In this document: in pieces, positions 1,576-21,205 of the stretch
Layout: the number at the start of each line of letters is the position of its first letter
How positions within the stretch are numbered: position 1 is the first letter of the stretch
NCBI GenBank assembly: GCA_938035125.1
Contig: CALHNS010000071.1
Location: forward strand, 1 to 33,928
From: an uncultured Granulosicoccaceae bacterium
GTDB lineage: Bacteria > Pseudomonadota > Gammaproteobacteria > Granulosicoccales > Granulosicoccaceae
Length of the DNA stretch: 33,928 nt
Direction: 5' to 3'
Position numbers and translations under genes: made by a program
Notes under the pieces: model-generated
The model's database searches: none
What the model was told of the DNA's origin: nothing
Seen by the model: the letters and a program-made list of their open reading frames with translations, nothing else

Positions 1576-1902
1576 ATGGCTAATTCAACGACGAACGCTG
1601 CGTTAATTGCTGGATCAATTGCTTTGGCAATTTCGGGTGCAAGCACGCTGCAAACGGCTGAAGCCGCGGCAAAAGAAAAGTGCTATGGCATTTCACTAGC
1701 GGGTCAAAACGACTGCGCAGCGGGTCCTGGCACCACTTGCGCCGGAACTTCAACGGTTGACTACCAAGGTAACGCATGGACTCTTGTACCTGCAGGCGAC
1801 TGTTTGAAATACGGTGCAGAAGACCAAGTGGCTGAATTTGAATTACCCGAAGATCGTGTGGGTTCTTTAGAACAGCTTGATCGTGATTTACCTACATCAT
1901 AA
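1576..1902 (+). CDS. bufA: DUF2282 bufferin-type precursor peptide
   Basis: This 108-residue protein has an N-terminal export signal (hydrophobic residues 8-22, Ala-rich cleavage zone near 28-32). The core holds four cysteines at 36, 47, 55 and 76 in the DUF2282 pattern ([26 protein letters not shown]). In characterised bufferins the MNIO enzyme BufB with BufC converts core cysteines to thiooxazole-type heterocycles, and the peptide then binds copper in the periplasm. The acidic tail after Cys76 ([15 protein letters not shown]) is probably outside the core. GAGGA (1563-1567) is a good ribosome site 8 bases before the ATG. BufB and BufC genes follow directly. The family call is secure; the modification here is inferred from family and context. 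Confidence 0.9.
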
Positions 1903-1932
1903 AAAGGAAGCACTTTTGCTTCGCAGTTAACC

Positions 1933-2838: not shown

Positions 2839-3583
2839 TTTTCAGCACGATGCCGCACTTGCGCTAAACGATCCGACACGGCAAAGCCCGCAAAATATTG
2901 CTGGGCGCACGATTGAGGGCAGTTCGCGACGTTTTAATATCTACAGAAACAATCGTGCAGGTAGCTTGCTAGAGTCATTGCAAGGAACCTATCCGGTGCT
3001 GCACAAGCTATTAGGCGATGATTTTTTTCGTACAGCCGCTCGCCAGTATATCGATGAATCACCACCTTCAGGGCCGGTGTTAAGTGAATACGGCGAACGT
3101 TTTGGGGATTTTATTCAACGTTTACCCGGTGTTTCAAAGTATCCCTATTTGAATGATGTGGCGAAACTGGAATGGCAACGCTTGCAGTCTTATCACGCGG
3201 CCGATGATGCCGTGCTTTTTCCGGCTGTGCTGCAAACCATCGAGCCTTCTACACTGCTGGCGTCAAGGTTCACACCACACAGCGCGGCGCATTTAATTGA
3301 ATCGCGTTGGGCCATAGGCAGCCTGTGGTCCAGTACTCAAGAGCCTGATGGCTCGCAGGTAAACCTTTCGCAAGCAGAAAATGTGTTGATTACGCGGCCG
3401 CAATTCGATTTGCAGCTACAATTGGTTAGCTCTGATGGAGCTATGTTCATGCGGCAATTGTGCAACGGCGTAACCATTGAACAAGCGGCAACACACTGTT
3501 TGAGCGTTAACGCAAATTTCGACACCGGGACCCATTTGCAAGGTTTAATGGGGATGGGTGCTTTTTCTCAAATTATTCACTAA
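2822..3583 (+). CDS. bufC: DUF2063 partner protein BufC
   Basis: The N-terminal half carries the DUF2063 (HvfC/BufC) pattern: LDSFQHDAALALND, then RFNIYRNN, then LLESLQGTYPVLHKLLGDDF and YPYLNDVAKLEWQRL. In studied systems this protein binds the precursor leader and presents it to the MNIO enzyme. The reading frame overlaps the end of bufB. GTG at 2822 gives the family-like start MLTLDSFQ and is chosen here. A TTG at 2813 is an alternative adding three residues. Neither has a clear ribosome site, which fits coupling to bufB translation. The C-terminal half (about residues 130-253) is less conserved and was recognised mainly by position. Confidence 0.88.
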   Translation: MLTLDSFQHDAALALNDPTRQSPQNIAGRTIEGSSRRFNIYRNNRAGSLLESLQGTYPVLHKLLGDDFFRTAARQYIDESPPSGPVLSEYGERFGDFIQRLPGVSKYPYLNDVAKLEWQRLQSYHAADDAVLFPAVLQTIEPSTLLASRFTPHSAAHLIESRWAIGSLWSSTQEPDGSQVNLSQAENVLITRPQFDLQLQLVSSDGAMFMRQLCNGVTIEQAATHCLSVNANFDTGTHLQGLMGMGAFSQIIH

Positions 3584-3613
3584 CTTTTTTTTAAAGATTA
3601 CGCAGGTTTCGAT

Positions 3614-4195
3614 ATGTTTAGTTTCTTTCGTCGCTTTCACGACGGCCTATTTTTCATTTTACGAAAAACCGAAGGGTGGATACCCGGTCTAGCGGCGCGT
3701 TTTGTTTTTGCCGGCGTGTTGTTTATGTACTTTTTCAATTCTGCAAAAACCAAAGTTGAAGACTTACCGGATGGGTTTTTTCAAGTTAAAGACAATGCTT
3801 TTTTCCAAATCATTCCTTCCGTTGTTGAGCGCTTTGACTACGATGCCTCGCAAGTGCCCTTAATTCCCTACAAGTTAATTGTGTACGTTGGAACCTACGC
3901 TGAATTCATTTTGCCGGTGTTGATCATATTAGGTTTGTTCACGCGGATATCCGCTGTTGGAATGATTATCTTTGTGCTAGTGCAATCGTATGTTGACATC
4001 AATGTGCATGCGGTGGGAGAAGAGGCTACAGGGGCACTGTTTGATCGATTCAGTAATTCAACGATCTTGGATCAAAGAGCGCTATGGGTGTTTTTACTAC
4101 TTTATTTAGCCGTCTATGGTGCGGGTAAGTTATCAGTAGATTACCTATTTAGTCGCAAAAGACCCATTCGAATCTCTTCTCGACCTTATAACTAA
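3614..4195 (+). CDS. DoxX-like inner-membrane protein
   Basis: This 193-residue protein has four likely membrane segments (about 26-42, 88-107, 110-127 and 155-172) and the DoxX look: a Gly/Ala-rich first helix (GLAARFVFAGVLFMYFF) and LPVLIILGLFTRISAVGM in the middle. DoxX proteins are small membrane proteins linked to redox and sulfur metabolism, and they recur as last genes of bufferin/MNIO operons. It starts 30 bases after bufC with an AGG ahead of the ATG and appears to end the operon. Whether it transports something or acts in electron transfer is not known. Confidence 0.85.
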   Translation: MFSFFRRFHDGLFFILRKTEGWIPGLAARFVFAGVLFMYFFNSAKTKVEDLPDGFFQVKDNAFFQIIPSVVERFDYDASQVPLIPYKLIVYVGTYAEFILPVLIILGLFTRISAVGMIIFVLVQSYVDINVHAVGEEATGALFDRFSNSTILDQRALWVFLLLYLAVYGAGKLSVDYLFSRKRPIRISSRPYN

Positions 4196-8437: not shown

Positions 8438-10177
8438 ATGTCGAAAACTATGCCCGAGCCCATCAAAATAGGTCTGCTGGTTGACGGCGATTCTGTCCCC
8501 ATGTGGGCAGCTGAAATCATTAAAAGGATCAATGAGGGTGACTATGCCCAAATCACTTTGGTGGTTAAGAACACGCTGCCAGGTGAGCTTGACGCCATTC
8601 GTGATGAGGCTAGTGCCAATGGCAATACGTTGCGCACGCTGTGGTTAAAATTTCGACGTAACCTTACCCGACTGTTTTTTATAGCGTTTTGGTATTTTGA
8701 TCGAAATATCAGTCGCTGGAAAAACCATTTCGAATCACCCTTTGAGCTTAGTGAGTTAGTTCCGGGGGTAAAAACGATAGAGGTCACGCCGCGCAAAACT
8801 AAATTTTCCGATGTAATCGATTCCGACGATATTGAGAAAATTGCTGAAGCCGATGTAGACATTCTATTTCGTCTAGGTTTTAGGATCTTACGTGGCCGTA
8901 TTTTGGATGTCGCCCGGTACGGTATCTGGTCGTTCCATCACGGTGATAACCGGTATATGCGTGGTGGTCCATCAGGTTATTGGGAATTAACCCATCAAGC
9001 ACCCACTGTGGGTGTAATTCTGCAAATATTAAATGAAGATTTGGATGGCGGCGCCGTGTTGGAAAGGTCATGGCATTTACCAGACATTTTGCTACTGAAC
9101 CGACAAAGGCAAAATGTGTTCATGCAATCGCTTTCCCATTTTCCGCGCCATGTGGAGCGCTTGCATCGCATGGGGCCAGATGCGTATTTTGCCGAAATAA
9201 AGCGAAAGAATCGGCATCCTGAATTTTATTCAAACCCGATGCGGGTAGCACCAAGAAATTCAGGGGCTTTTCGATCATTGGGTCAGCATTACCTTAGGTA
9301 TCTTTGGAAAAAATTGATCCAGTTGTTTTTCTTCCGCCAATGGATGCTTTTAGGCTCTGCACACCATGGCCGTCCCATGAGCACCTCCATGTGGCGATTT
9401 AAAGACATTCTTCCACCCCGTGATCGAATGTGGGCTGATCCGTTCATTATTGAAAAAGATGGCACGTTTTATCTGTATATCGAAGAAATGATCTATGCGA
9501 AAGGTCATGGCCACATATCGATGATGACCATGGATCGTGACGGCAATTGGACAAACCCAGTTCCCATTATTGAAATGCCTTATCACATGTCATACCCCTT
9601 CGTTTTCGAATACGAAAACCAGTGGTATATGATTCCAGAAACGGCTGAAAATAGAACGGTCGATCTGTACAAGTGCACACAATTTCCCGATAAATGGGAG
9701 AAAACCAGTACGTTAATGAGCGATATATTCGCTGTTGATTCAACGCTGTTGGAGCACGAAGGGAAGTGGTGGATGTTCACCACCGTAAAGGAAAGTGAAC
9801 ACACCAACTGTTTAGATGAACTGCATATTTATTATGCCGACAGTCCTTTGTCCACAGAGTGGACTCCTCACCCTCGGAATCCCGTATCTACCGATGTTAG
9901 AAATGCAAGGCCTGCTGGAGCTATTTTTGAATCAGGTGGCAGCCTTTATCGACCTGCGCAAAACGGCTCTAATCACTACGGTTATGGCATGAACATCAAT
10001 TTGATTGAAGTGTTAGACACTGAGAATTACAAAGAACGCACGGTTAGCTCCATTGAGCCAAAGTGGGATTGGAGCATCAACGCAACGCATACGCTTAACC
10101 ATACAGATGGTTTAACGATGAGCGATGGTAGCAAACTGCGATTTCGATATTTTCGTAACCACGATTCCAAAGAATAA
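8438..10177 (+). CDS. Formyltransferase-like domain fused to a GINT1-like beta-propeller domain
   Basis: This is 579 residues with no signal peptide. The N-terminal half (about 8-260) has the formyltransferase Rossmann layout (IKIGLLVDGDSVPMWAAEII; FRLGFRILRGRIL; then IWSFHHGDNRYMRGGPSGYW and LQILNEDLDGGAVL). In methionyl-tRNA formyltransferase the catalytic set is N-x-H plus an Asp. Here the N-x-H site reads S165-F-H167, while an Asp is kept in the NEDLDGG block. The C-terminal half (about 315-579) has PRDRMWADPFIIEKDGTFYL and YPFVFEYENQWYMIPE, the GH43-like propeller seen in the N-terminal part of plant glucosamine inositolphosphorylceramide transferase. A sugar- or amine-directed acyl transfer role is inferred. 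It lies 29 bases before the phosphopantetheinyl transferase gene, probably in one operon. No ribosome site is clear at 8438. Confidence 0.75.
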   Translation: MSKTMPEPIKIGLLVDGDSVPMWAAEIIKRINEGDYAQITLVVKNTLPGELDAIRDEASANGNTLRTLWLKFRRNLTRLFFIAFWYFDRNISRWKNHFESPFELSELVPGVKTIEVTPRKTKFSDVIDSDDIEKIAEADVDILFRLGFRILRGRILDVARYGIWSFHHGDNRYMRGGPSGYWELTHQAPTVGVILQILNEDLDGGAVLERSWHLPDILLLNRQRQNVFMQSLSHFPRHVERLHRMGPDAYFAEIKRKNRHPEFYSNPMRVAPRNSGAFRSLGQHYLRYLWKKLIQLFFFRQWMLLGSAHHGRPMSTSMWRFKDILPPRDRMWADPFIIEKDGTFYLYIEEMIYAKGHGHISMMTMDRDGNWTNPVPIIEMPYHMSYPFVFEYENQWYMIPETAENRTVDLYKCTQFPDKWEKTSTLMSDIFAVDSTLLEHEGKWWMFTTVKESEHTNCLDELHIYYADSPLSTEWTPHPRNPVSTDVRNARPAGAIFESGGSLYRPAQNGSNHYGYGMNINLIEVLDTENYKERTVSSIEPKWDWSINATHTLNHTDGLTMSDGSKLRFRYFRNHDSKE

Positions 10178-10206
10178 TCAAATCGGCTACGCGTTGAAAC
10201 GAGTCC

Positions 10207-10944
10207 ATGAAAAGCTCTGATGATGCGCAACAATTTATCCGTAAGATTACTTCCAGTGATTTTGGTATCACAGGCTTACATGCCGTTCTATGTGAATTTG
10301 ATGAAAATCAGCTTGACGATTCTGATTTTGAGAGACTCTCGGTATATCAACCGGACAATATAAAGCGCGCTGTACGTAAAAGACGTGCAGACTATTTGGC
10401 CGGGCGGTGCTGTGCTGCATCAGCGTTACAAGCTTTCGGACGTTCAGACTCCTATGATGTTCTCTCGGGGCCATCTCGTGAGCCGCTTTGGCCTGATGGT
10501 GTTGCTGGTTCTATCACACACAGCGGCCAGCTGGCAGCGGCGATAGTGGGTTCAAACACAAAATTTTCGGGCTTGGGCATAGATATAGAGCGCGTGGTAA
10601 AGCACAGTGTGGCAAAGCAATTAAGCCAACGCGTGCTCACACCCACCGAGGCCGAATGGGTTAATCAATCCCATACAGAAAGTGAACTGTTATTTACCTC
10701 CATATTCGGTATTAAAGAGGCATTCTTCAAAGCCGCATTTCCGTGTGTTGGTCGATACTTTGGGTTCAGCGCAATTTCTGTAGATTCGTTCACCTTAGAA
10801 CAATGTGGAAGGGGAGAGCAGGCGCGGTTTCGAGTTAATCAGGATTTAGCGACTGGTTTGAAAAAAGGGCAAATGCTCGATGCGCAGGTAGAACGGCTGC
10901 CCAACGATCAAATCCGAGCCTTAGTAGTTATTCAAAATGGGTGA
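10207..10944 (+). CDS. 4'-phosphopantetheinyl transferase, EntD/Sfp type
   Basis: This 245-residue protein has the family blocks in order: RRADYLAGRCCAASAL (about 60-74), PLWPDGVAGSITHSG (93-107), the magnesium-binding GLGIDIERV (122-130, Asp125 and Glu127 region) and FGIKEAFFKAAFP (167-179). It transfers the phosphopantetheine arm from CoA to a conserved serine on carrier proteins. Two carriers in this window are obvious clients: the T domain of the NRPS (Ser1034) and the stand-alone ACP (Ser41). It is probably co-transcribed with the preceding formyltransferase-like gene. The EntD-like sequence points to secondary metabolism rather than fatty-acid AcpS. Confidence 0.93.
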   Translation: MKSSDDAQQFIRKITSSDFGITGLHAVLCEFDENQLDDSDFERLSVYQPDNIKRAVRKRRADYLAGRCCAASALQAFGRSDSYDVLSGPSREPLWPDGVAGSITHSGQLAAAIVGSNTKFSGLGIDIERVVKHSVAKQLSQRVLTPTEAEWVNQSHTESELLFTSIFGIKEAFFKAAFPCVGRYFGFSAISVDSFTLEQCGRGEQARFRVNQDLATGLKKGQMLDAQVERLPNDQIRALVVIQNG

Positions 10945-11177
10945 ATGTTATCGCCATTGTTAAACCAATTAGCGCCGATTGGTGGCTGGTTGCAGTGTGT
11001 TTGTACGTGGTTAAGATCTGGAAATGTTTTTTAAATTCGTGATGTTTTGCCTGCCTTTTTGCGAAACTATTGGGAGATATTACGCTCAAAATTGCAGTTG
11101 CCCTAGGGCGGCGCGCATGATAGCGTCGGACAATCTAGGACGTTTAACTCGATAAAGAGTATCTCGAAAGGACAATC

Positions 11178-12434
11178 ATGACTCAAGCCTTGGCCAACCA
11201 TCCGGCAGGTGTAACGCTACTCACTCCAGAGTCAAGTTCTAAAGAGATCATCGATCACTGCAAAGCTCTTGCGCAACGATTCAAAGAACGAGCCGCACAT
11301 CACGATCGAACACGTGAGTTCCCAGTTCAGAATTTTACTGAAATTCGCCAAAGCGGATTATTGTCTTTGATGGTGCCCAGAGAATTTGGCGGTTTGGGTG
11401 CGGATTTTCAAACCTATACCAAAGCTATTGAACAAATAGCTATGGGGGATGCATCCACAGCGTTAGCTTTTAATATGCATAACATCGCAGCAGGCACACT
11501 AGCTGAAGCGCGTACCGATACGCTAACGGGAAAAAGAGCGGAAGTTCTGGAGAATTTTAAATTATGGGCATTTAATGAAATCGTTGTGAATCAGAAAATA
11601 TTTGCATCAGCGAATTCCGAACCTGGGGTTGGAGCGCATTTCAGTAAGCTTAAAACGACCTATAAAAAAGTGAATGGGGGTTTTGAAATTACGGGCTTAA
11701 AGTCTTGGGTGTCAATGGCGGGTCACGCCGACTACTACGTTACTACCGCTCGTAAAGAAGGGGTAGATTCAAAATTTCCTGATTTGTCATTTTTTGTTAT
11801 AGAGGCGAGCAACCCCGCCATACGTATAGAAGAGGTATGGGATACGTTGGGCATGCGTTCCACGTGCACGAACATGATGCACTTAGAAAAGGTTTTAGTG
11901 CCCGACGAACATTTGTTTTTAGGTACTCAAGGGTTGGGTATATTGAAAGTGGTACGAGAACCCCATTGGACGATCGCTGGGTACGTTGGTGTGTACTTGG
12001 GGCTTTGCGCGGCTAGTTTTGAATTTATGTGCGATTATTTAAAGAGTAGAAATAAGCCAGGTACCGATGAACCGGTTGCACACAGTGACTGGATTCAGCA
12101 CCGGGTGGGTGAACTTGCCATGTCTATGGAAGCTTGTCGCACGGTGGTGTACGATGCAGCCCGCCAAGTGGATGAAAACCCTGGTGCCCCAGAAACTAAT
12201 GAAGCTGTGCACCGCAGTAAATACATGGCAGGTGAACTTGGGCCACATATGGCGTCGCAGGCAATGCGACTTTGTGGCGGAAGCACCATTGCCAAGCGTT
12301 TGCCTCTAGAACGTTTTTATCGTGATAGCCGCTGCGGTGGTTTAATGCCCGCCACCAGTGATGAGTGCTTGTTGTTTTTAGGAAAGTCGGCTCTGGGTTT
12401 TGATATGACCCGTGTTGATGAATCATACTGGTAA
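11178..12434 (+). CDS. Acyl-CoA dehydrogenase-like flavoprotein
   Basis: This 418-residue protein has the three-domain acyl-CoA dehydrogenase layout: helical start (LLSLMVPREFGGLGADFQTY, about 72-91), mid beta domain (GFEITGLKSWVSMAGHADYY) and C-terminal helical domain (MRLCGGSTIAKRLPLERFYRD). It binds FAD and should oxidise the alpha-beta bond of an acyl thioester or act as a flavin oxygenase. The usual catalytic Glu in the EGT block is not there: the aligned stretch reads LMPATSDE (Pro391), as in DszC-like members. AAAGGA precedes the ATG. It lies 30 bases upstream of the NRPS gene, so a carrier-bound aminoacyl substrate is plausible. A substrate cannot be named. Confidence 0.88.
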   Translation: MTQALANHPAGVTLLTPESSSKEIIDHCKALAQRFKERAAHHDRTREFPVQNFTEIRQSGLLSLMVPREFGGLGADFQTYTKAIEQIAMGDASTALAFNMHNIAAGTLAEARTDTLTGKRAEVLENFKLWAFNEIVVNQKIFASANSEPGVGAHFSKLKTTYKKVNGGFEITGLKSWVSMAGHADYYVTTARKEGVDSKFPDLSFFVIEASNPAIRIEEVWDTLGMRSTCTNMMHLEKVLVPDEHLFLGTQGLGILKVVREPHWTIAGYVGVYLGLCAASFEFMCDYLKSRNKPGTDEPVAHSDWIQHRVGELAMSMEACRTVVYDAARQVDENPGAPETNEAVHRSKYMAGELGPHMASQAMRLCGGSTIAKRLPLERFYRDSRCGGLMPATSDECLLFLGKSALGFDMTRVDESYW

Positions 12435-12464
12435 TTGGCACGCGTAATTCAATAATCGATACTG

Positions 12465-15400
12465 ATGCGTAGCTCCAACGCCCAGCAAGTCCTCAATTCG
12501 GTGAGTGCGCATGTAGCCACTGAAGCACAGCATGGTTTGTATTATCTATGCCGGTTAAATCCTGACAGCCCTGCCTACAACGTCAGCTGCTGCTATCAAT
12601 TGACAGGGAAAATTGATCTTGTAGCGCTTAATAAAAGTTTGGCATCAATCGTTAAGCGCCATGATGCATTACGTACTCACTTCTGCGTTAGCTCTGAAGG
12701 TCTTCTTGCGCTCACGTGCGATTCCAATAGCGAAACTACAACTAATGCTAATGCAGCAGCTGCGTCCAATGCGAAATATGATTATCTAAGAATTGAATCG
12801 TTACCCGATGATATTGACACATCTGTTGAAAGTGAATTACTCAACCGGATAATAAACGAGCCGTTTAATCTAGATAATGGTTCTGCTTTATATCGATGTG
12901 TTTTATTGTCTAGCGCCGATGGTGAGAATCATCGTTTAGTGTTTGTTGTACATCATTTGGTGTTTGATCATTTTTCAAAATCCGTTTTTCAATTTGAACT
13001 CACTCGTTTTTATGCAGCCCATACAGGCTTTGCATCGCAGGATGAATATCCAGCGCCCAACGTAGAGTACCAGTTGAATCAATACGCAAATTATAAACAC
13101 CAGCAATGTGAGGCTAAAAACTACAAAAGGCAATTGGCATACTGGGAGAAAAAGCTTTTAAATCATTCCCAAGCGTATATTCCGATCGATTACACTCGCC
13201 CGACAAATGCCTGTGCACAAGGAATTCGTATTCGCAGACGAATCAGCGCATCGCAGATTGAAAGTATGCGTACGCTTGCATCAGCGAATCAAACCACTTT
13301 GTTCATGGGGATGCTTACCATTGGGCAGTTGTTGATATCGCGTTGGAGTGGTGAGCCTTGCGTAAGTGTTGGAACCCATATGCAAGATCGCAGAGAACTA
13401 GGTTCTGAACATGCAATTGGGTTTTTCCTCAATACACTCGTGCTAGTTTCGAATTTCGACGATTGCGATGATTTTATCGATGCGTTAAAAGTTGTGAGAA
13501 AAACATGTTTTGACGCTTTTCGATTCAGTCAGGTATCGTTTGAACGGTTGGTTCAATCTTTACCATCGATTCGTGAGAGTTCCAGAACCCCGTTTTTCGA
13601 TATACGTTTTTCACATCTTAGCCCGCATGAGCACGATTTGGATTTGAATGGGGTTCAAGTTCAGGCCATTGAACCTAATATTTGCCGTGCGCGCTACGAT
13701 CTTACATTCACTTTCCATGAAAACACGGATCAGTGTTTCATCGAGGCAGAATATAAAACGTCGCTGTTTAATGAAAATACCATCAATTGGTTATTGGATA
13801 ATTATTTAGAGATACTCCAAGGCGTTAGCCAAAATTCAAATTATTCAATTTCAGATATGGGTTTGATTCGCGGTGAAAAACAGGAGCAGTTGCTAAAAAT
13901 TTGTAAGCCTGAGCCAGTCGAATTCCCAGAATACCTCACCATAGCAGAACTGGTATCTCGTCAAGTGATTGAATCGCCGGATAAGCCTGCGGTGTATGAC
14001 GATGCTCACCATCTCACCTACCGTACACTAGATTCTGACTCTACCAAGCTTGCCAAGCAATTATTACATTCGGGAGTGTCATCAGGAAGCATTGTCGGTG
14101 TGTGCATGGAACGTTCAACCCAAATGATGGTTGCGCTATTAGCGGTGCTAAAAGTGGGGGCCGCGTATCTGCCGTTGGATAAAAATTTCCCGAAAGAACG
14201 ACTGCTTTACATGTTGTCAGATTCTGGGTGTCGCACCTTATTAGTTGATGAATCTACTTCGGGTACGATTACTTTAAATGAAGTAACTGAACTTCATGTT
14301 CATAGTTTAGTAAACTCTCCGCTCAATGATGCAGAGGCTAATGCCATTGAAAAACCGGTTATAGCTGACGTTAAGCCGTCAGATATTGCTTATCTCATCT
14401 ACACATCGGGTTCTACGGGTAACCCTAAAGCCGTTCAAGTAACCCATCAAAATGTGGTTAATTTTCTTGCCAGCATGGGTAAAACCCCAGGGCTTAATCA
14501 AAACGATGTCATTGTGGCTGTCACCACCTTATCATTTGACATAGCAGTTCTTGAGCTGTGGTTGCCGCTAGTGGTGGGGGCCAGTGTGGTAATTGCCTCA
14601 AAAGAGACGTCCACCAACGGAAAACGCTTAGCGAGCTTACTTCGTGAATCCAACGCAACCATGATGCAGGCCACACCCGTTACATGGCGATTATTACTTA
14701 GCGCCGGTTGGAAAGGCTGTAAAAAATTCACGGCCTTATGTGGTGGGGAAGCATTACCACCCGATCTAGGAAAAACGCTGTCACAACAATGTAAGGCGCT
14801 GTGGAACATGTACGGCCCCACAGAAACCACCGTGTGGTCTTGCCTTTGGAAAGTGGATTCTGATGCTCCGCAAATGCTGATTGGCAAGCCTATCGATAAT
14901 ACCTCTGTTTACGTGTTAGATCGATTTGGACAGCTGTCGTATCCTGGCACCGTTGGGCACTTACATATTGGTGGAGCAGGCGTAAGTGCTGGCTATCTTG
15001 GTAACAAAGAATTAACTCAACAGAAATTCTTTGCAAACCCTCTGGATGCTAACGAAACGCTATACGCCACGGGAGATTCAGTAAAACAGTTATCAGATGG
15101 GAATTTAACGTACATCGGCCGAATCGATAATCAAATCAAATTACGTGGTCACAGAATTGAATTAGGTGAAATAGAGGCTAAATTAACCGCTCATCCTAAG
15201 GTTCAGGAAGCGGCAGCAACCATCGTTGAGTACGACAATGGAGATGTTCAACTACATGCTTATGTAACAGGATTTACAGATGATTCTAACTACGCAAATG
15301 AATTGCGTACTCATTTGAAAAGCCTTCTGCCCAGGTATATGGTGCCCCAGCATTTTTTATTAATGGATTTTTTACCCCAAACACCAAATGGGAAAATTGA

Positions 15401-16526
15401 TCGTAAAGCCTTACCTACTGATTTGCCCAAACCAATAGCTTCGCTTTGCTCAAGTGCTGAACCGAAAACCCGATTAGAGAAACAACTGGCTGGTATATGG
15501 GCTGATGTACTTCAGATCGATAATGTGCCTGTAAGCGAGACATTTTTTGATTTAGGTGGGCACTCGCTACTAGCGATGTTGGTGCTTGCAAAAGCCAAAA
15601 GCGAGATGGCATTAGAGATTGATCCTGTAGCAATGATTGACAGCCCGATTAAAACAATCCTTGCTGGTAAGGATCCAGAAGTAAATCACCACCAAAAGCA
15701 CCAGCATCAGGGTGTGGCAAACGCACAAAAGCCCACCGTAAAAACCGGGTTCTTCGACTCCAACCGTTTATATGCTCGTTTGCATGTGCCTCATCATTCG
15801 ATCCATGTGCAAGGATCAGTGCTTTTGTGCAATCCCTTATTCGCTGAAGCTAATCATGTGCATTGGGCTTATCGACAACTAGCCAACCGCTTAGCTGCGG
15901 ATGGTTATATGGTGCTTCGATTTGATTATTTTGGTTGCGGAAATTCGTTAGGAGATGATGAAGAAGGTTCTGTTGATGAATGGCTACGCAATATAAAATC
16001 TGCTAGCGCTTATTTATGTGAAGCATCGGGTCATACGCTGATTAGCATGGTTGGTTATCGATTTGGAGCAGCGCTTGCAAGCATGACTGAGAGCTTTGAT
16101 GTAGATCAATTGATATTGTGGGAACCAGTCTTTCATGGTGCTGATCAGGTGAGACATTTAGACAGTAAGTACAGTGCGGCTGTGAAAGGGCTGAACGGAT
16201 TCAGACCCAACCCAACAACAAAGCAATCATCAGAAATCACAGGTTTTACATTTACTAGAACATTGCGTGATGAATTAACACAGTTTCAGTTTGCCTATAC
16301 TGGGTCAGCGGCGAATAGTCGACAAATAAAAGTGGTGTCGCAACATCAAGCCGTTCAAAATGATTCCTCAATACACCTTTTAGAAAGTGAGCATAACGAT
16401 GTGGCGTTTATTCACGTCGACGATTCAGCCCCTAGCATCGATGCGTTAGATGAACAAGCCGCCTGGTTACCGGGGAAAAGCTTAACCCAAGTTGTCTCTC
16501 TGATATCAGGAAAACGTGATGCGTGA
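12465..16526 (+). CDS. Single-module NRPS (C-A-T) with C-terminal nucleophile-less alpha/beta hydrolase
   Basis: This is 1353 residues with four domains. The condensation domain (about 15-460) has RHDALRTHF, the active-site motif HHLVFDH (163-169, where the last position is usually Gly) and the C5-like block GTHMQDRRELG. The adenylation domain (about 485-985) has YTSGSTGNPK (646-655), MYGPTETT (782-789) and NGKIDRK (975-981). My by-eye pocket residues are D692, I, L, Q, L, G, M782, V, W, close to codes reported for glycine. The carrier domain has DLGGHSLL with Ser1034. After a His-rich linker (HHQKHQHQ, about 1075-1082) comes an alpha/beta hydrolase fold (LRFDYFGCGNSLGD) whose elbow reads GYRFG (1197-1201), with Arg in place of Ser. 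It therefore does not look like a normal thioesterase. The fold resembles exosortase A-associated hydrolase 2. The start ATG has only a weak ribosome site. Confidence 0.9.
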   Translation: MRSSNAQQVLNSVSAHVATEAQHGLYYLCRLNPDSPAYNVSCCYQLTGKIDLVALNKSLASIVKRHDALRTHFCVSSEGLLALTCDSNSETTTNANAAAASNAKYDYLRIESLPDDIDTSVESELLNRIINEPFNLDNGSALYRCVLLSSADGENHRLVFVVHHLVFDHFSKSVFQFELTRFYAAHTGFASQDEYPAPNVEYQLNQYANYKHQQCEAKNYKRQLAYWEKKLLNHSQAYIPIDYTRPTNACAQGIRIRRRISASQIESMRTLASANQTTLFMGMLTIGQLLISRWSGEPCVSVGTHMQDRRELGSEHAIGFFLNTLVLVSNFDDCDDFIDALKVVRKTCFDAFRFSQVSFERLVQSLPSIRESSRTPFFDIRFSHLSPHEHDLDLNGVQVQAIEPNICRARYDLTFTFHENTDQCFIEAEYKTSLFNENTINWLLDNYLEILQGVSQNSNYSISDMGLIRGEKQEQLLKICKPEPVEFPEYLTIAELVSRQVIESPDKPAVYDDAHHLTYRTLDSDSTKLAKQLLHSGVSSGSIVGVCMERSTQMMVALLAVLKVGAAYLPLDKNFPKERLLYMLSDSGCRTLLVDESTSGTITLNEVTELHVHSLVNSPLNDAEANAIEKPVIADVKPSDIAYLIYTSGSTGNPKAVQVTHQNVVNFLASMGKTPGLNQNDVIVAVTTLSFDIAVLELWLPLVVGASVVIASKETSTNGKRLASLLRESNATMMQATPVTWRLLLSAGWKGCKKFTALCGGEALPPDLGKTLSQQCKALWNMYGPTETTVWSCLWKVDSDAPQMLIGKPIDNTSVYVLDRFGQLSYPGTVGHLHIGGAGVSAGYLGNKELTQQKFFANPLDANETLYATGDSVKQLSDGNLTYIGRIDNQIKLRGHRIELGEIEAKLTAHPKVQEAAATIVEYDNGDVQLHAYVTGFTDDSNYANELRTHLKSLLPRYMVPQHFLLMDFLPQTPNGKIDRKALPTDLPKPIASLCSSAEPKTRLEKQLAGIWADVLQIDNVPVSETFFDLGGHSLLAMLVLAKAKSEMALEIDPVAMIDSPIKTILAGKDPEVNHHQKHQHQGVANAQKPTVKTGFFDSNRLYARLHVPHHSIHVQGSVLLCNPLFAEANHVHWAYRQLANRLAADGYMVLRFDYFGCGNSLGDDEEGSVDEWLRNIKSASAYLCEASGHTLISMVGYRFGAALASMTESFDVDQLILWEPVFHGADQVRHLDSKYSAAVKGLNGFRPNPTTKQSSEITGFTFTRTLRDELTQFQFAYTGSAANSRQIKVVSQHQAVQNDSSIHLLESEHNDVAFIHVDDSAPSIDALDEQAAWLPGKSLTQVVSLISGKRDA

Positions 16527-17406
16527 ATTAAGTATTCATTGCGGCAACGATCCTGAGCTGATTGGTATTTACACAGATTGCGAGAATGCTAATTCTGACG
16601 GTGCAGGTGCAGGTGCAAAAATGCAGGGTCAGTCCTCAACAATTAATAGGCCCGTTGTTTTATTGTTAAATTCAGGCTTATTGCCGAATGTGGGCCCTTA
16701 TCGGCTTTACGTAAGATTGGCAAGGCATTTTGCAACGTTGGGGTTCAACACATATCGGTTTGATATTTCTGGTATTGGCGATAGCGCTCGAAGCAGCAAT
16801 CCGCTGGATAGATCGGAGCAACAAATTCGTGATGTAGAAATTGTGATGAATCATCTTGAAGAGAAATTAAAGTGTGATTCTTTTATTGTGATGGGTATAT
16901 GCACAGGTGCCGATAATGCTCACCGAGCGATGATGGCTGATAGGCGTATCGTGGGTGTGGTGGCGATAGACGGGTATTACTATAAAACCCCTCGTTATCA
17001 TGCTAATCGATTATTTAAAGAACTCCTGCCTAAAGCCTTACAGCTTCGCACTTTGTTAAATAGATTAATTGGCGTTCGTCAAAATATTTTCAACTCTATT
17101 GAGCCCAATCTAGATGCTGAACAAAACCCTGTAACGGTTCCGTATCGGTGGGAGCTGCCAGAGAAGATGAAAACAGAATCTGATTTTAAAGAAATCATCG
17201 ATCGGGATGCCAATATGTTATGCGTTTTTACAGCGAATTGGCCGTACAACTATACCGAGCAATTAGCCGACGCTTTCCCATCATTGGAGTTTGGCGAGAA
17301 TATACGTGTTCAATATCTGAAAAACGCGGCACATTTATTTCCGATTGCTGAAGATAGAGCATATCTAACTGATGCAATATCAGATTGGTTGTTAGATCGA
17401 TTCTAA
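16519..17406 (+). CDS. Alpha/beta hydrolase with cysteine nucleophile elbow, exosortase-A hydrolase-1-like
   Basis: This is 295 residues from ATG 16519, which has AGGAAA just ahead; a GTG at 16516 is also in frame. It overlaps the NRPS stop by 8 bases, so translation is probably coupled. The fold shows LLNSGLLPNVGPYRLYVRLA, then YRFDISGIGDS, then the elbow GICTG (126-130) with Cys128 where serine hydrolases have Ser, and AHLFPIAED near the end holding a possible catalytic His. GxCxG elbows occur in the hydrolases annotated next to exosortase A. It may take the product from the carrier domain or act as an acyltransferase. A low-complexity stretch DGAGAGAK lies near residues 29-36. Confidence 0.85.
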   Translation: MRELSIHCGNDPELIGIYTDCENANSDGAGAGAKMQGQSSTINRPVVLLLNSGLLPNVGPYRLYVRLARHFATLGFNTYRFDISGIGDSARSSNPLDRSEQQIRDVEIVMNHLEEKLKCDSFIVMGICTGADNAHRAMMADRRIVGVVAIDGYYYKTPRYHANRLFKELLPKALQLRTLLNRLIGVRQNIFNSIEPNLDAEQNPVTVPYRWELPEKMKTESDFKEIIDRDANMLCVFTANWPYNYTEQLADAFPSLEFGENIRVQYLKNAAHLFPIAEDRAYLTDAISDWLLDRF

Positions 17407-17412
17407 TCTGCA

Positions 17413-17439
17413 CCAATTAATTGTGTTCCATTTAATTGG
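17413..17439. terminator. Inverted repeat between convergent genes, possible weak two-way terminator
   Basis: CCAATTAA (17413-17420) pairs with TTAATTGG (17432-17439) over an 11-base loop. It lies 7 bases after the hydrolase stop and about 40 bases from the end of the ACP gene. It is AT-rich and has no long T-run on either strand, so termination is only suggested. Confidence 0.4.
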
Positions 17440-17480
17440 CGATCAATAAGCTGAATCTAAACTCACTGTGTTGTAACGGC

Positions 17481-17747
17481 TTAGGTCGTTTGCCGTTGTA
17501 TCACCTCATTAATAAAATTAGACAAAGTTCCAACGGTTGCAAAGTGCTCAAAACCCATATCTTCATCATCTAATTCAATAGAGAATTCACCTTCCAGTTG
17601 AGTCAATAATTCAACGATATTTATTGAGTTTAGTTTCAAGTCATCGAACAGAGAAGAATCGTTAGACAATTCAGATTCCTGTAATTCAGGTGCAATGTCA
17701 TTGCAAATTAGGTAGGTAATTCGATTGGAGGTTGTGCTGGATGTCAT
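17481..17747 (-). CDS. Stand-alone acyl/peptidyl carrier protein
   Basis: This 88-residue acidic protein has the carrier-protein four-helix pattern. The phosphopantetheine attachment block reads DDLKLNSINIVELL with Ser41; the usual Asp before the serine is Asn here. Helix 3 has DDEDMGFEHFATVGTLSNFI, close to the usual pattern. AGGCAAAA precedes the ATG. It lies 18 bases after the adenylating ligase gene on the same strand, and such ligase/carrier pairs load one amino or aryl acid onto the carrier. The window's phosphopantetheinyl transferase should activate it. It is the likely donor or acceptor partner of the NRPS condensation domain. Confidence 0.9.
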   Translation of the reverse strand: MTSSTTSNRITYLICNDIAPELQESELSNDSSLFDDLKLNSINIVELLTQLEGEFSIELDDEDMGFEHFATVGTLSNFINEVIQRQTT

Positions 17748-17765
17748 GTTTTTTGCCTATTGTAT

Positions 17766-19361
17766 TTAATCGTTATCAGCAGCAATTTTTGCAAGCTGCG
17801 ATCGATCTATTTTTCCTGAATTATTCAGTGGTAAGTTAGATAAAGAAATTATTGTTTTAGGTACCATATATTGCGGTAAATGCTGTTTACAATGAAGCAG
17901 TATGTCAGCAATGAAATGTTTTTCACCTAGCGCTAAATTTTCTAGTTTATTTGAATTGTTATTTGAAGTAGAGCTGATTGTTGGAACCACATAACCGATG
18001 AGTTCATCGCCAACATTTTCTGTATGGGTTCTTTTAACTACGGCAGCTTGTTCTACGGATTTATGTGTTAACAAACAAGTCTCAATTTCACCCAGCTCTA
18101 CCCGGTACCCCCAAATTTTAACCATATTGTCAATTCGCCCGTGATAATGCCAAAGCCCGTCGGTTGACAAACTGGTTAGGTCACCGGTGGCATAGGCTTG
18201 AACATTTTGATCGACTGTGTCTTGTACCCAAATGTCAGAATTTGAGTCTGTTTGGGAGAGATAACCACTCATTACTGAGGGGCCGGATACACATAATTCT
18301 CCCTCTAACGCATTAGTTGAATCGCTGTTAGGTGATTCATTTTGGCGCAAAAATAAGTGCATTCCAGGTAATGCATGCCCTAACGGAATGTGAGGCTGAT
18401 CGAAGGATGCAGGTACATGGAAATAGGTACACACATTCGTTTCCGTCGGGCCGTAGAGATTGCTGTATTGAATATGAGCTGGAAGACGATCAGCCAGCTG
18501 TTGAAATTGTGGCACTGGGAATTCTTCACCGGCGAAAATAACAGATCGTAAATGGGAGAAATCTCGATCGGCTAATTTTCCTCTTTGCGACAACAGTATG
18601 AGAGTTGAGGGCACCGCGTAAATTCGCGTTATGGCATGTTTCACCAAAAATTTAGACAATCGAGCGGGAAAGATTTTCATATTTTCAGGAACAAGGTATA
18701 ACGTTGCACCAGAACCTAGGGTTGCGAATAGATCGAATGTGGTTAAATCAAACGTCAGGGGGGAAACTGAGGCTATTCGATCACTTTGAGTTAATTCGTA
18801 TTCTTGGATTGCCCACAAGGGGAAATGGGCGGCTGCTTGGTGCGACACACACACACCTTTTGGCACACCAGTAGAACCCGACGTATATAAAATGTATGCC
18901 AGTTGATCAGGTAGCGTAGGTAACGGAGCGGTTATTAATTCAGTAGGTATACTCAGTGCTTCATTCCATTCATCACCATGACAAGCTAAATGTTGAGTAA
19001 ATTCCTTGTGCTCGAATGCGGCGTATTCCTCTTGGGTAAGATGCGTTATGCACAAAGAGAATGTATTGCTTGAAAATATTTTTTGAAGCCTAGATTGAGT
19101 CCAATTTTCGCCCAATGGGGCATAGGTGTTTCCAGATTTTAATATTCCGAAAATCGCAATGACCGCTTCAATGGATTTGGGCATTAACAACGCGATGTGT
19201 TGACTATTGCCTGGAACATTTTGGTTTATCCAAAGCGCTAACGAGGTCGATTTTTGCTCTAATTCTGAATACGTCAGGGTTCCTTCAGCGCTCCATACAG
19301 CACATTGATCTGGCAGCGCTGACGCGGCTTTGGACATCGCATCTTGGATTGTGAGAACCAT
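17766..19361 (-). CDS. Stand-alone amino-acid adenylating ligase
   Basis: This 531-residue ANL-superfamily enzyme has YTSGSTGVPKG (159-169), SPLTFDLTTFDLF (200-212), LYGPTETNVC (302-311), ATGDL, GRIDNMVKIWGYRVELGEIE and the catalytic-Lys block NNSGKIDRS near the end. By eye the pocket residues are D205, L206, F209, A249, I275, A277, L302, V310, C311. The NLYGPTETNVC form is typical of free-standing ligases that load amino acids onto separate carriers (PltF/PigI type). The pocket only partly matches their proline code, so the substrate is open. It should form an aminoacyl-AMP and pass it to the ACP encoded 18 bases downstream. GAAG precedes the ATG. Confidence 0.9.
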   Translation of the reverse strand: MVLTIQDAMSKAASALPDQCAVWSAEGTLTYSELEQKSTSLALWINQNVPGNSQHIALLMPKSIEAVIAIFGILKSGNTYAPLGENWTQSRLQKIFSSNTFSLCITHLTQEEYAAFEHKEFTQHLACHGDEWNEALSIPTELITAPLPTLPDQLAYILYTSGSTGVPKGVCVSHQAAAHFPLWAIQEYELTQSDRIASVSPLTFDLTTFDLFATLGSGATLYLVPENMKIFPARLSKFLVKHAITRIYAVPSTLILLSQRGKLADRDFSHLRSVIFAGEEFPVPQFQQLADRLPAHIQYSNLYGPTETNVCTYFHVPASFDQPHIPLGHALPGMHLFLRQNESPNSDSTNALEGELCVSGPSVMSGYLSQTDSNSDIWVQDTVDQNVQAYATGDLTSLSTDGLWHYHGRIDNMVKIWGYRVELGEIETCLLTHKSVEQAAVVKRTHTENVGDELIGYVVPTISSTSNNNSNKLENLALGEKHFIADILLHCKQHLPQYMVPKTIISLSNLPLNNSGKIDRSQLAKIAADND

Positions 19362-19418
19362 TCGATTTTTCTTCAGGCAGGGGTAAAACCTATAACTTCA
19401 TTTAGTGCTTTGTGTAGG

Positions 19419-19445
19419 CATTTCGTTCACTTAGATAACGAAATG
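19419..19445. promoter_or_regulatory. Perfect 9-bp inverted repeat upstream of the ligase gene
   Basis: CATTTCGTT (19419-19427) and AACGAAATG (19437-19445) form a perfect repeat around 9 bases. It lies 58-84 bases before the ligase start and after the end of the kinase gene. No T-run follows on the minus strand, so an operator fits better than a terminator. No regulator is identified. Confidence 0.4.
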
Positions 19446-19514
19446 GATACCCTAAATACCAGCAATTAATATAACCAAACACGTGTGGGAGAGAGCGATA
19501 ATATGGTGTATCAA

Positions 19515-20624
19515 TCAACGTTCAAATTCTTGAGCGATTCTGTCTATGGTTTCTTTGGCAAGATAACAGCCTACACGTTCTTCTACATGTTGAATAAGCT
19601 CAATGTCTGAATTTTCTGCCGACCAGTCTTCGGTGTTTTCAGTAATTAGCTTATTTGTTTTTGAGCTTTTTTTACTTTGTACCGTCCACTTGGCACACCA
19701 TGTCAGAGACCAAAGCCACATCAAACGTCGCATGGGTAACAAATGCGGAGCTAGTGCCGTTGCTAAATTGGCTGGCATTGCATCAGCCCATGTTCGATAG
19801 AACGAATCTATGTCTGGTTGTGTTAATGCGCAATAACTGTCTCTATCCCAGGTTGTGGATGTGTACAAAGTAGCGTGAGCCAAATCGAAACCTGCGCCGC
19901 CGTATCGCGCCTTTTCTAAGTCAACCAGATGCGCTTTACCCTTGGCATCAATAAGAAAATTACCTGGGTGAGCATCAAACGAAATCAGTGACACAGGAGA
20001 ATCTTCTGATTGGTTTATCTCTTTTTCAGATAGCTTTAGCTGTTGTTTGATGGCCTGTTTGCTTGCGGGGCTGCAATTCGACGATTCTAAATATTCACTT
20101 TGAGACTGCACTTCGGCCAAAGTGGCTCGCAGTGGTTGGGATTGATTGATTAGTGGTTGTCGTTTGGCTTCGGAAGGTAGCGCTAGGCTATGAATCGATG
20201 CCAATGCTTGCGCTACCTGGGAAATTTCATTGGATGGTGATAGAGGGCGGCCATCGATAAACTCTACCACTAAGCAACCCATTGGCAGAAATTCAGTTGG
20301 CGTCACCATTCCATAGTAAGCAGGCGTATGACCGCTGCTGTGCAGGCGTTGGAAACAGTGCGCTTGATAGTTAAGGTTGTCGATCGCGTTTAGGCGCATT
20401 TGGCTTTGCTTAGGAATTCTTAATAAATAATTTGATTTCCCAATACGAATATGATCATGTGCCAAACCGCTGGATTTTAGATGGTTTAAATCATCAATAT
20501 CCATTTCAGAAAAAACGTATTGCAATTCTTCTGTCGTAGCAACCGGGCACGTCTTTTCCCTTTGAAAACTGGTCTTCAATGTGCTGAGTAGGTTTTGTTT
20601 TACCTGTGGGTCATCGTATTTCAT
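19515..20624 (-). CDS. APH/choline-kinase-like phosphotransferase
   Basis: This 369-residue protein has a protein-kinase-like fold of the aminoglycoside phosphotransferase group. Visible parts are LVVEFIDGRPLSP (118-130, hinge), a catalytic loop SFDAHPGNFL (215-224) and LVDLEKARYGGAGFDLAH, the equivalent of the DFG region (Asp235). The usual HGD of the loop reads SFD, but the catalytic Asp217 and metal-binding Asn222 are kept, so activity is likely. It should phosphorylate a small sugar, amino-alcohol or nucleoside hydroxyl. Its start overlaps the stop of the DUF2064 gene in an ATGA arrangement, so the two are translationally coupled. The partner suggests a sugar or sugar-nucleotide substrate. 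Confidence 0.82.
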   Translation of the reverse strand: MKYDDPQVKQNLLSTLKTSFQREKTCPVATTEELQYVFSEMDIDDLNHLKSSGLAHDHIRIGKSNYLLRIPKQSQMRLNAIDNLNYQAHCFQRLHSSGHTPAYYGMVTPTEFLPMGCLVVEFIDGRPLSPSNEISQVAQALASIHSLALPSEAKRQPLINQSQPLRATLAEVQSQSEYLESSNCSPASKQAIKQQLKLSEKEINQSEDSPVSLISFDAHPGNFLIDAKGKAHLVDLEKARYGGAGFDLAHATLYTSTTWDRDSYCALTQPDIDSFYRTWADAMPANLATALAPHLLPMRRLMWLWSLTWCAKWTVQSKKSSKTNKLITENTEDWSAENSDIELIQHVEERVGCYLAKETIDRIAQEFER

Positions 20625-21205
20625 TGTTGTTGATAATAACTGACTGCGTCATCAACGTCTGTTAGCGTATCTATTTGTGCTACTGTTAAATGTTCTGGAA
20701 TACTTAGTAATGTATCGGTTAATGCGTATTGACTTGACCATCGAACATTGCGCATAAATTCTTCTGGCAGGGTTAAGTTCTTGCGACAACCTACAGACCA
20801 AAAGCCACCATCGGTTGCAGGACCAAACACTAAATCATAACTTTCTAACGCGTTGAATGCTCGTTCCAGATGATCAGGATTTAATTCTGGGATATCGCTG
20901 CCAATTATGAGCGTGTGTTGTTGGTTATTCTGGGATAACACATGGAGCATGCGTTGCCCGATGTCGCCTTGTGTTTGTGTAATGACCTGATGTGCATCAA
21001 AAAGTGAATGATCGCAATCGTTTGCTGAAGCCACGGCCACAACAAGTTCCCAAGGTCCATTAGAGCAATTGAGAAGGAGTTGGCTCAGACAGGTTTGATA
21101 AAAGTTGTGCGCGGCGGCGGCGCCAATTTCGCGGGCAAGCCGAGTTTTGCCATAACCTAGGCGCGGGGCTCTAGCAAAAACAACTAATTGTCGATTTTTA
21201 TGCAT
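20621..21205 (-). CDS. DUF2064 / TIGR04282-type nucleotidyl- or glycosyltransferase-like protein
   Basis: This is 194 residues. The start VVFARAPRLGYGKTRLAREI is the signature of the DUF2064 family, a GT-A fold. Later blocks are GDIGQRM, LIIGSDIPELNPDHLERA and YDLVFGPATDGGFWSVGC, holding the metal and nucleotide-sugar positions. Homologues occur in arsenosugar and related pathways as glycosyl or nucleotidyl transferases. The gene overlaps the kinase gene by four bases, suggesting phosphorylation followed by nucleotidyl or glycosyl transfer on one substrate. No strong ribosome site precedes the ATG at 21205. Confidence 0.87.
   Translation of the reverse strand: MHKNRQLVVFARAPRLGYGKTRLAREIGAAAAHNFYQTCLSQLLLNCSNGPWELVVAVASANDCDHSLFDAHQVITQTQGDIGQRMLHVLSQNNQQHTLIIGSDIPELNPDHLERAFNALESYDLVFGPATDGGFWSVGCRKNLTLPEEFMRNVRWSSQYALTDTLLSIPEHLTVAQIDTLTDVDDAVSYYQQQ

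What the first reader, a model, noticed from the sequence alone, without database searches (positions are those of the whole stretch)
8438..21205. Candidate undescribed aminoacyl/acyl conjugation locus with two carrier proteins and sugar-acting enzymes
Seen: within 13 kb lie a formyltransferase-like/GINT1-like fusion, PPTase, ACAD-like flavoprotein, one-module NRPS with a fused degenerate hydrolase, a Cys-elbow hydrolase, a free ACP, a free adenylating ligase, an APH-like kinase and a DUF2064 transferase. Known: ligase/ACP pairs load one acid, and a C-A-T module can join it to a second amino acid. Inference: the locus builds a two-part acyl-amino-acid on carriers, perhaps oxidised by the flavoprotein, and places it on a sugar or lipid made with the kinase, DUF2064 and formyltransferase-like proteins. 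I know of no described pathway with this gene set.
Basis: partly seen in the sequence, partly recalled or inferred. Interest (0 to 1): 0.85.

Follow-up and report, generated by a model that had tools for sequence, protein, structure and literature searches.

The report
Pro-Gly carrier cassette with paired hydrolases
Five of the nine reported genes form a small, transplantable bacterial cassette that seems to join proline to glycine on carrier proteins and hand the product on through a dead-plus-live pair of hydrolases, a pair that recurs beside carrier proteins in other bacteria and hints at what a set of unexplained polysaccharide-associated enzymes does.

Summary
All nine genes are present, but they are not one system. 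A five-gene convergent cassette (11178-19361) recurs, in the same order and with different flanks, in 6 of 48 genomes of the order: ACAD-like flavoprotein, NRPS (C-A-T fused to a pseudo-hydrolase), Cys-hydrolase, carrier protein and ligase. The GINT1-like, PPTase, APH-like and DUF2064 genes are not part of it. The ligase carries a proline-type code, the NRPS a glycine code. The flavoprotein lacks both catalytic glutamates and falls outside the prolyl-carrier dehydrogenases, so simple pyrrole formation is unlikely. The most informative part is the hydrolase pair. Its nearest models are exosortase-A 'hydrolase 2' and 'hydrolase 1', both below cut-off, and no exosortase was found in the genome. 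In 54 examined loci the second partner always has Cys and His (54 of 54), while the first has Arg (50) or Gly (4) at the nucleophile position. In 36 loci chosen by the first partner alone, the second follows in 36 and a carrier lies within 500 bp upstream in 23 (random mean 4.7). Two copies are fused to polysaccharide flippase domains. Best reading: a carrier-to-acceptor aminoacyl transfer module, acceptor probably a sugar. No activity was tested.

The parts
11178..12434 (+). ACAD-fold flavoprotein, first gene of the cassette; Glu absent at both canonical catalytic positions (T265, P391)
   Evidence: Pfam Acyl-CoA_dh domains; orthologues 73-76% identical in 4 genomes; alignment; tree
12465..16526 (+). 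One-module NRPS: C (aa 18-477), A (499-977, Gly code DILQLGMVWK), T (1007-1060, Ser1034), C-terminal pseudo-hydrolase with Arg1199 at the nucleophile position
15732..16523 (+). Fused pseudo-hydrolase domain (hydr2-like, GYRFG elbow, no His at the aligned catalytic position)
   Evidence: best NCBIfam match TIGR03101 81 bits, cut-off 203
16516..17406 (+). Cys alpha/beta-hydrolase (hydr1-like, GICTG, Cys129, His273); start overlaps the NRPS end by 11 bases
   Evidence: best NCBIfam match TIGR03100 49 bits, cut-off 168
17481..17747 (-). Free carrier protein (Ser41 in LNSI)
   Evidence: PF00550; orthologue alignment
17766..19361 (-). Free adenylating ligase, proline-type code DLFYIALVCK
10207..10944 (+). 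Sfp-type phosphopantetheinyl transferase; could activate both carriers, but is not part of the recurring cassette
   Evidence: no homologue in the fetched flanks of the other five cassettes
8438..10177 (+). GINT1_N-domain protein; neighbour, not a cassette member
   Evidence: 27 of 48 genomes carry a match, cassette in 6 of 48; on the cassette contig also in G026, about 6 kb away
19515..21205 (-). APH-like kinase and DUF2064/TIGR04282 gene, overlapping by 4 bases; neighbours, not cassette members

Best explanation
The real unit is a five-gene aminoacyl-conjugation cassette. The ligase loads proline on the free carrier and the NRPS A domain loads glycine on its T domain. The C domain joins them to a prolyl-glycyl (or oxidised prolyl-glycyl) thioester on the T domain. 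The ACAD-fold flavoprotein oxidises a carrier-bound residue, more likely as an atypical oxidase or monooxygenase than as a desaturase. The fused Arg-pseudo-hydrolase and the separate Cys-hydrolase work as one offloading unit: the pseudo-hydrolase docks or positions the carrier, and the Cys enzyme takes the acyl group as a thioester and passes it to an acceptor, most likely an amine or hydroxyl of an envelope or exopolysaccharide sugar. Shown by sequence: the cassette, the specificity codes, the Arg/Cys split and the linkage to carriers. Inferred: the order of steps, the flavoprotein reaction, the covalent Cys intermediate and the sugar acceptor.
For: Cassette order kept in 6 genomes with different flanks. 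Ligase code DLFY[I/L]ALVCK in 6 of 6; the ligase of a Pseudoalteromonas prodigiosin cluster has DLFYIAWVCK, and the S. clavuligerus and Microvirga homologues have DLFYLALVCK. NRPS code DILQLGM[V/I]WK in 6 of 6. HHxxxD and carrier Ser motifs intact in 6 of 6. In 54 loci: hydr1 Cys 54 of 54 and His 54 of 54; hydr2 Arg 50 and Gly 4 of 54, His at the aligned position in 1 of 54; hydr2 precedes hydr1 on the same strand with a gap of at most 154 bases in 54 of 54, in one ORF in 13. Carrier fused to hydr2 in 16 of 54 and within 500 bp in 23 more. In the 36 loci chosen by the hydr2 profile: carrier fused or within 500 bp in 23, all upstream on the same strand; random placement mean 4.7, max 13 in 5000 runs. 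Paired distances correlate, r 0.82, 0 of 2000 permutations. Full A-T-hydr2-hydr1 fusions in L127 (Pfam) and L128. Sugar link: hydr2-hydr1 fused to a Polysacc_synt_3 flippase domain in L201 and L202; Variovorax pair inside a polysaccharide cluster; a flippase gene next to the pair in L190 and L200, and a glycosyltransferase gene next to it in L190 and 1.4 kb away in L199.
Against: No polysaccharide gene is conserved with this cassette. 8 of 54 loci show no carrier in the stretch fetched, and 2 only beyond 5 kb. The pair scores below the exosortase cut-offs, so function cannot be transferred by name. My hydr1 and hydr2 queries all carry Cys and Arg, which may favour such relatives; two weakly matching own-genome hydrolases that I added as controls passed no threshold, so there is no Ser-type control. 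The two AlphaFold models (one sequence; two sequences) were useless, pLDDT 36, so the Cys-His geometry is unmodelled. Codes predict substrates but do not prove them.
Confidence: 0.45

Rival explanations
1. An ordinary small-molecule cluster: a Pro-Gly-derived dipeptide is made and set free by hydrolysis or cyclisation, with the Cys-hydrolase as its thioesterase. No sugar is involved.
For: Self-contained five-gene cassette with variable flanks; no conserved glycan gene; several related pairs follow long NRPS or PKS proteins (L131, L192, L195, L208).
Against: The same pair sits in polysaccharide and exosortase loci and is fused to flippase domains, an odd place for a plain thioesterase. The conserved Arg pseudo-partner is not needed for simple hydrolysis.
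Confidence: 0.25
2. The Cys-hydrolase is an acyl shuttle of the CmaE kind: it moves the (oxidised) prolyl group from the free carrier to the NRPS, and release happens otherwise.
For: Two separate carriers on two operons; carrier-to-carrier aminoacyl transfer by CmaE, with homologues in the syringomycin and zorbamycin pathways, is described in PMC8748450 (passages seen).
Against: The pair also occurs where only one carrier was found in the fetched stretch, 18 of 18 loci of the exosortase-like subgroup, and in A-T-hydr2-hydr1 fusions with one carrier (L127, L128), where a shuttle between two carriers has no obvious partner. A condensation domain can take the acyl group from the free carrier directly.
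Confidence: 0.13
3. A standard pyrrole-2-carboxyl route (as in prodigiosin or coumermycin): ligase, carrier and ACAD make pyrrolyl-S-carrier, which is joined to glycine.
For: Proline-type ligase and small carrier; ACAD gene in the same cassette; a weak PigA/RedW match, 93-94 bits.
Against: Scores far below the PigA and RedW cut-offs of 500 and 650. The ACAD lacks the helix-G Glu (Thr265) and the C-terminal Glu (Pro391). It groups with a Streptomyces ACAD beside a flavin reductase and with ACADs of DUF1839 loci, not with the ACADs that sit beside proline-type ligases.
Confidence: 0.1
4. One reading: all nine genes in 8438-21205 are one glycoconjugate pathway.
For: Short gaps and shared strands could allow co-transcription; a GINT1-like gene lies about 6 kb from the cassette also in G026.
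Against: The four outer genes do not travel with the cassette.
Confidence: 0.05

Closest known systems
Exosortase A-associated hydrolase 1 and hydrolase 2 (TIGR03100, TIGR03101) with their carrier protein and ligase
   Same: Adjacent hydrolase pair, Cys elbow plus Arg elbow; in the exosortase-like subgroup a carrier within 500 bp of hydr2 in 16 of 18 loci
   Different: Here hydr2 is fused to an NRPS, scores are below the family cut-offs, and no exosortase is found in the genome
aaRS-like amino acid:[carrier protein] ligase / DUF1839 loci (PMC2922099, note in proof read)
   Same: Seen whole or in part in L146, L201, L202 and L204: carrier, ACAD-like redox protein, and a fused hydr2-hydr1 protein; the authors of PMC2922099 proposed amino acid transfer to a cell-surface sugar
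   Different: Activation there is by an aaRS-like ligase, here by NRPS A domains; no DUF1839 or GH2 family was hit in the 28 window ORFs scanned; in L201, L202 and L204 the hydr2 elbow has Gly, not Arg
Prolyl-carrier ligase modules (PigI, PltF type)
   Same: Ligase code and discrete carrier
   Different: The flavoprotein belongs to another subfamily and lacks the catalytic Glu
CmaE aminoacyl shuttle and CouN7 acyltransferase
   Same: Enzymes that move aminoacyl or pyrrole-acyl groups between or from carriers (PMC8748450, passages seen)
   Different: No pseudo-hydrolase partner is known to me there (recalled); direct sequence comparison was not made

Membership tests
Exosortase A-associated hydrolase 1 (TIGR03100) | Score over the curated cut-off of 168.45 bits | tested here: not met
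   48.8 bits
Exosortase A-associated hydrolase 2 (TIGR03101) | Score over the curated cut-off of 202.75 bits | tested here: not met
   81.1 bits for the fused domain
Exosortase A system | Exosortase gene (PF09721) in the genome | tested here: not met
   0 of 6 cassette genomes; 15 of the 19 genomes outside the order searched in the same call have one. The own genome is 92.5% complete, G041 63%
Paired Arg/Cys hydrolases beside a carrier (the wider group described here) | Adjacent hydr2 without a Ser/Cys/Asp nucleophile and hydr1 with Cys and His | tested here: met
   Window: Arg1199, Cys129, His273; group 54 of 54
Prolyl-carrier ligase (PigI/PltF type) | Proline-type ten-residue code | tested here: met
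   DLFYIALVCK, compared with the ligase of a prodigiosin cluster and others; enzyme activity not tested
Prolyl-carrier dehydrogenase (PigA NF053553 / RedW NF045652) | Score over cut-off (500 / 650 bits) and helix-G catalytic Glu | tested here: not met
   94.3 and 93.1 bits; Thr265 at the Glu position
NRPS module | C, A and T domains with intact motifs | tested here: met
   Pfam; HHxxxD and GGHS in 6 of 6
aaRS-like aa:[carrier] ligase / DUF1839 system | aaRS-like ligase and DUF1839 protein | tested here: not met
   Neither family hit in the 28 window ORFs scanned with Pfam
CmaE/CouN7 acyltransferases | Transfer of an acyl group from a carrier through the enzyme nucleophile | not testable with these tools
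   Needs biochemistry; only the Cys-His motif is seen here

The most novel reading that the evidence does not exclude
The Arg-pseudo-hydrolase plus Cys-hydrolase pair is a general carrier-protein-to-glycan aminoacyl transferase, used with NRPS, PKS, aaRS-like and acyl-ligase loading systems. This would explain the unexplained carrier, ligase and two hydrolases of exosortase A loci, and the window cassette would be its Pro-Gly, oxidised variant.
Probability: 0.3. Interest if true: 0.85.

Novelty: new variant of a known kind. Interest (0 to 1): 0.6.

Why it matters
The function of exosortase A hydrolases 1 and 2 looks open: their NCBIfam models are only 'hypothetical equivalogs', and of the papers listed by four literature searches none has a title or abstract start that explains them (one search returned nothing). 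Fusion of one partner to an NRPS T domain makes it likely that the pair acts on carrier-bound acyl groups. It also gives a small cassette with predictable substrates (Pro, Gly) in which to test this. A conserved pseudoenzyme-enzyme pair tied to carriers in several activation systems would be a new general tool of natural-product and polysaccharide chemistry.

Tried and rejected
Rejected: one nine-gene pathway (neighbourhood comparison). Rejected as first guess: canonical pyrrole formation by the ACAD. I first read Glu261 as the catalytic base by eye; the alignment put Thr265 at the place of the Glu of ACADs found beside proline-type ligases. Rejected: membership in the exosortase A system. Not resolved: the codes of the exosortase-locus ligases (DYSATSMRSK and similar). 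Their A5 motif did not match, so I draw nothing from them.

Led nowhere: AlphaFold models of the Cys-hydrolase (one sequence) and the ACAD (two sequences), pLDDT 36.0 and 36.3; no fold search was run. Literature: exosortase with hydrolase, carrier and ligase terms returned 0, 17 (15 listed), 1 and 1,759 papers (10 listed, a loose two-term search); carrier protein ligase with SerRS 24 (12 listed); Bll0957/Atu2573 0; PDB codes 5GJ7/5Z8T 0; pyrrole-2-carboxyl with glycine 1. A search on NRPS and polysaccharide conjugation failed for a term and was not repeated, so that question was not searched. The first A-domain alignment shifted the Gly code by a gap and had one row read out of frame (L130_A2, dropped); a second with other gap settings gave the codes quoted. 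Pfam gave no family for two ORFs beside hydrolase pairs (L199:7319-8788, L206:4852-6252).

Limits of the counts. The 54 loci are: 16 from the window's order found by similarity to the Cys-hydrolase (6 cassettes, 10 others; one search found 24 genomes with a match, of which I took 16); 2 plasmid records of the 5 matched; and 36 regions from hydr2-profile searches. In the class search (28 of 274 genomes matched) I took 10 of 16 matches above and 10 of 14 below the cut-off, two of the other four being already held. In the phylum search (23 of 398 genomes matched) I took the 16 matches below the cut-off other than the window's and none of the 7 above. Two genomes give two regions each. The loci are not independent of phylogeny.
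Full report
Observation. Domain searches confirm a GINT1_N domain, PPTase, ACAD, C-A-T NRPS with an S33-type C-terminal domain, a second S33-type hydrolase, an ACP, an AMP ligase, an APH kinase and a DUF2064/TIGR04282 protein. The 'formyltransferase-like' half of the first gene found no Pfam family, and only one PDB sequence at E 0.057.

Host. The two closest named relatives of the GINT1-like protein come from Granulosicoccaceae, and the window's order held 48 genomes.

What travels together. In 6 of 48 genomes (window, G004, G024, G025, G026, G041) the same five genes lie in the same convergent order: ACAD, NRPS and Cys-hydrolase facing carrier and ligase. In G041 the contig ends inside the NRPS, so its ACAD is not seen. 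Flanking genes differ; the flank families shared between any two of the six are a GINT1-like gene (window and G026), one pair between G024 and G025, and one between G024 and G026. Flanks are short in G004 (0.9 and 1.4 kb) and G041 (1.3 and 0 kb). GINT1-like matches occur in 27 of 48 genomes. The closest GINT1-like proteins (63% and 57% identical) have none of the cassette within the 10 kb fetched, less where the contig ends. In a draw of 321 genomes of the class, the cassette ACAD was found at E <= 1e-110 in the window's genome only; two of the other 320 are listed as of its own family.

Substrates. The ligase code is DLFY[I/L]ALVCK in 6 of 6. The ligase inside an annotated Pseudoalteromonas prodigiosin cluster reads DLFYIAWVCK, the S. 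clavuligerus and Microvirga homologues DLFYLALVCK and a Brasilonema one DLLYLALVCK. The closest stand-alone ligase with a solved structure is an L-proline--carrier ligase. That this is the proline-type code for carrier ligases is recalled, supported by these contexts. The NRPS A domain reads DILQLGM[V/I]WK in 6 of 6, the glycine code (recalled). HHxxxD and carrier serines are intact.

The flavoprotein. It scores 93-94 bits against the PigA and RedW prolyl-carrier dehydrogenase models, whose cut-offs are 500 and 650. I aligned it with ACADs of Brasilonema and S. clavuligerus that sit beside ligases with the proline-type code, and with a Streptomyces ACAD of the same kind. It has Thr265 where these three have the helix-G Glu, and Pro391 at the other known Glu position (the roles of these positions are recalled). 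Its nearest relative found is a second Streptomyces ACAD next to a flavin reductase, 37% identical. In a 13-row tree it groups with that protein (98/98) and then with ACADs of DUF1839 loci (99/98), apart from the other three; three rows have long branches, so the tree is a rough guide. The Streptomyces ligase beside those two ACADs does not have the proline code (DLFIAGLACK). I therefore favour an unusual oxidation, perhaps monooxygenation, over pyrrole formation. The window's genome has a separate ACAD on contig C95, 45% identical to the S. clavuligerus one, in another NRPS cluster; 3 of the 6 cassette genomes have a match of 42% or more over most of its length.

The hydrolase pair. The fused domain's best model is TIGR03101, exosortase A hydrolase 2 (81 bits, cut-off 203). 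The free enzyme's best model is TIGR03100, hydrolase 1 (49 bits, cut-off 168). Neither is a member, and no exosortase was found in any of the six cassette genomes, against 15 of 19 genomes outside the order in the same call. Yet the architecture is shared. I collected 54 loci: the 6 cassettes, 10 further loci of the order, an Azospirillum and a Variovorax plasmid, and 36 regions found with the hydr2 profile in the class and phylum. In one alignment hydr1 has Cys in 54 of 54 and His in 54 of 54; hydr2 has Arg in 50 and Gly in 4 of 54, and a His at the aligned position in 1 of 54. Hydr2 precedes hydr1 on the same strand, at most 154 bases away, in 54 of 54; in 13 both lie in one ORF. In the 36 regions chosen by hydr2 the partner was thus present in 36 of 36. 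Distances within the two partners correlate (r 0.82; 0 of 2000 permutations), a figure that also reflects shared ancestry of the hosts. Because my queries carry Cys and Arg, a search for Ser-type relatives of either partner remains to be done.

Link to carriers. A carrier domain is fused to hydr2 in 16 of 54 loci, within 500 bp in 23, within 5 kb in 5, further off in 2, and absent from the fetched stretch in 8. In the 36 regions chosen by hydr2 it is fused or within 500 bp in 23, always upstream on the same strand. Random placement of the same 39 carriers gives a mean of 4.7 and a maximum of 13 in 5000 runs. A-T-hydr2-hydr1 fusions exist in two genomes (L127, confirmed by Pfam, and L128). In L131 the pair follows a PKS ending in a carrier domain. 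Of 22 A domains lying within 350 bp upstream of hydr2, 13 carry a glycine code (6 of them the cassettes), 4 DIEHVTAV[T/S]K (one split over two ORFs), 2 a beta-alanine-like code and 3 others (assignments of codes recalled).

Link to sugars. In L201 and L202 hydr2-hydr1 is fused to a Polysacc_synt_3 domain, in loci that also hold an aaRS-like aa:[carrier] ligase, DUF1839 and GH2 genes; L201 and L204 also show the ACAD. For that ligase system a note in proof in PMC2922099 (section read) proposed ligation of an amino acid to a cell-surface sugar, with a redox enzyme acting on the aminoacyl group, probably by monooxygenation. It credits an uncharacterised ORF, Atu2574 (probably the DUF1839 protein, my inference), and not a hydrolase, as the ligase. 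The Variovorax pair follows an NRPS and a PPTase and precedes polysaccharide export genes. A flippase gene is next to the pair in L190 and L200, and a glycosyltransferase gene is next to it in L190 and 1.4 kb away in L199. In the window itself no sugar gene is conserved with the cassette, so the acceptor here is an inference.

Mechanism. I propose that Pro and Gly are loaded on two carriers and condensed, that one residue is oxidised by the flavoprotein, and that the T-bound product is docked by the Arg pseudo-hydrolase and moved through Cys129 to an acceptor, probably a sugar. PMC8748450 (passages seen) reports aminoacyl transfer between carriers by CmaE and transfer of a pyrrole acid unit by CouN7, so carrier-to-acceptor transfer of this sort has precedent. 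Whether those enzymes use Cys was not checked.

Novelty. The parts are known families; the exosortase hydrolases are named but, as far as I could see, unexplained. I found no paper describing the Arg/Cys pair with carriers (listings, plus passages of PMC7293339). Most subscription papers are not held; the 2011 paper on N-acyl amino acid synthases and exosortase loci, cited in PMC7293339, could not be read. I rate it a new variant of a known kind, with a bolder general reading kept as the novel case.

Noticed in passing
window 1576-4195: DUF2282, MNIO (MbnB_TglH_ChrH), DUF2063 and DoxX genes in a row: looks like a bufferin-type copper RiPP operon (name recalled).
   Followed up: no
G000 contig C95:1-20000 (locus L136): A second NRPS cluster of the same genome with ligase (code DMLYIAVQCK), a small ORF with a carrier match, NRPS and an ACAD 45% identical to one beside a proline-type ligase.
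   Followed up: partly
L201:6364-9696 and L202:6960-10313: Polysaccharide flippase domain fused to the hydr2-hydr1 pair; hydr2 elbow has Gly instead of Arg.
   Followed up: partly
L130 and L133: NRPS with beta-alanine-like code plus the hydrolase pair; in L130 UbiD-like, acyl ligase, small carrier and MR_MLE-like genes lie nearby.
   Followed up: no
L124, L125, L126, L127, L128, L132: An A-domain code DIEHVTAV[T/S]K of unknown substrate recurs in the NRPS that precede the hydrolase pair; DegT-like aminotransferase genes lie nearby in L124 and L128.
   Followed up: no
L141:8063-13577 (Streptomyces NZ_CP109577.1): Hydrolase, ligase, ACP, two different ACADs and a flavin reductase in a row; the second ACAD is the nearest relative of the cassette flavoprotein found.
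   Followed up: partly
window 28565-31606: Two neighbouring lactonase-type beta-propeller genes in tandem.
   Followed up: no
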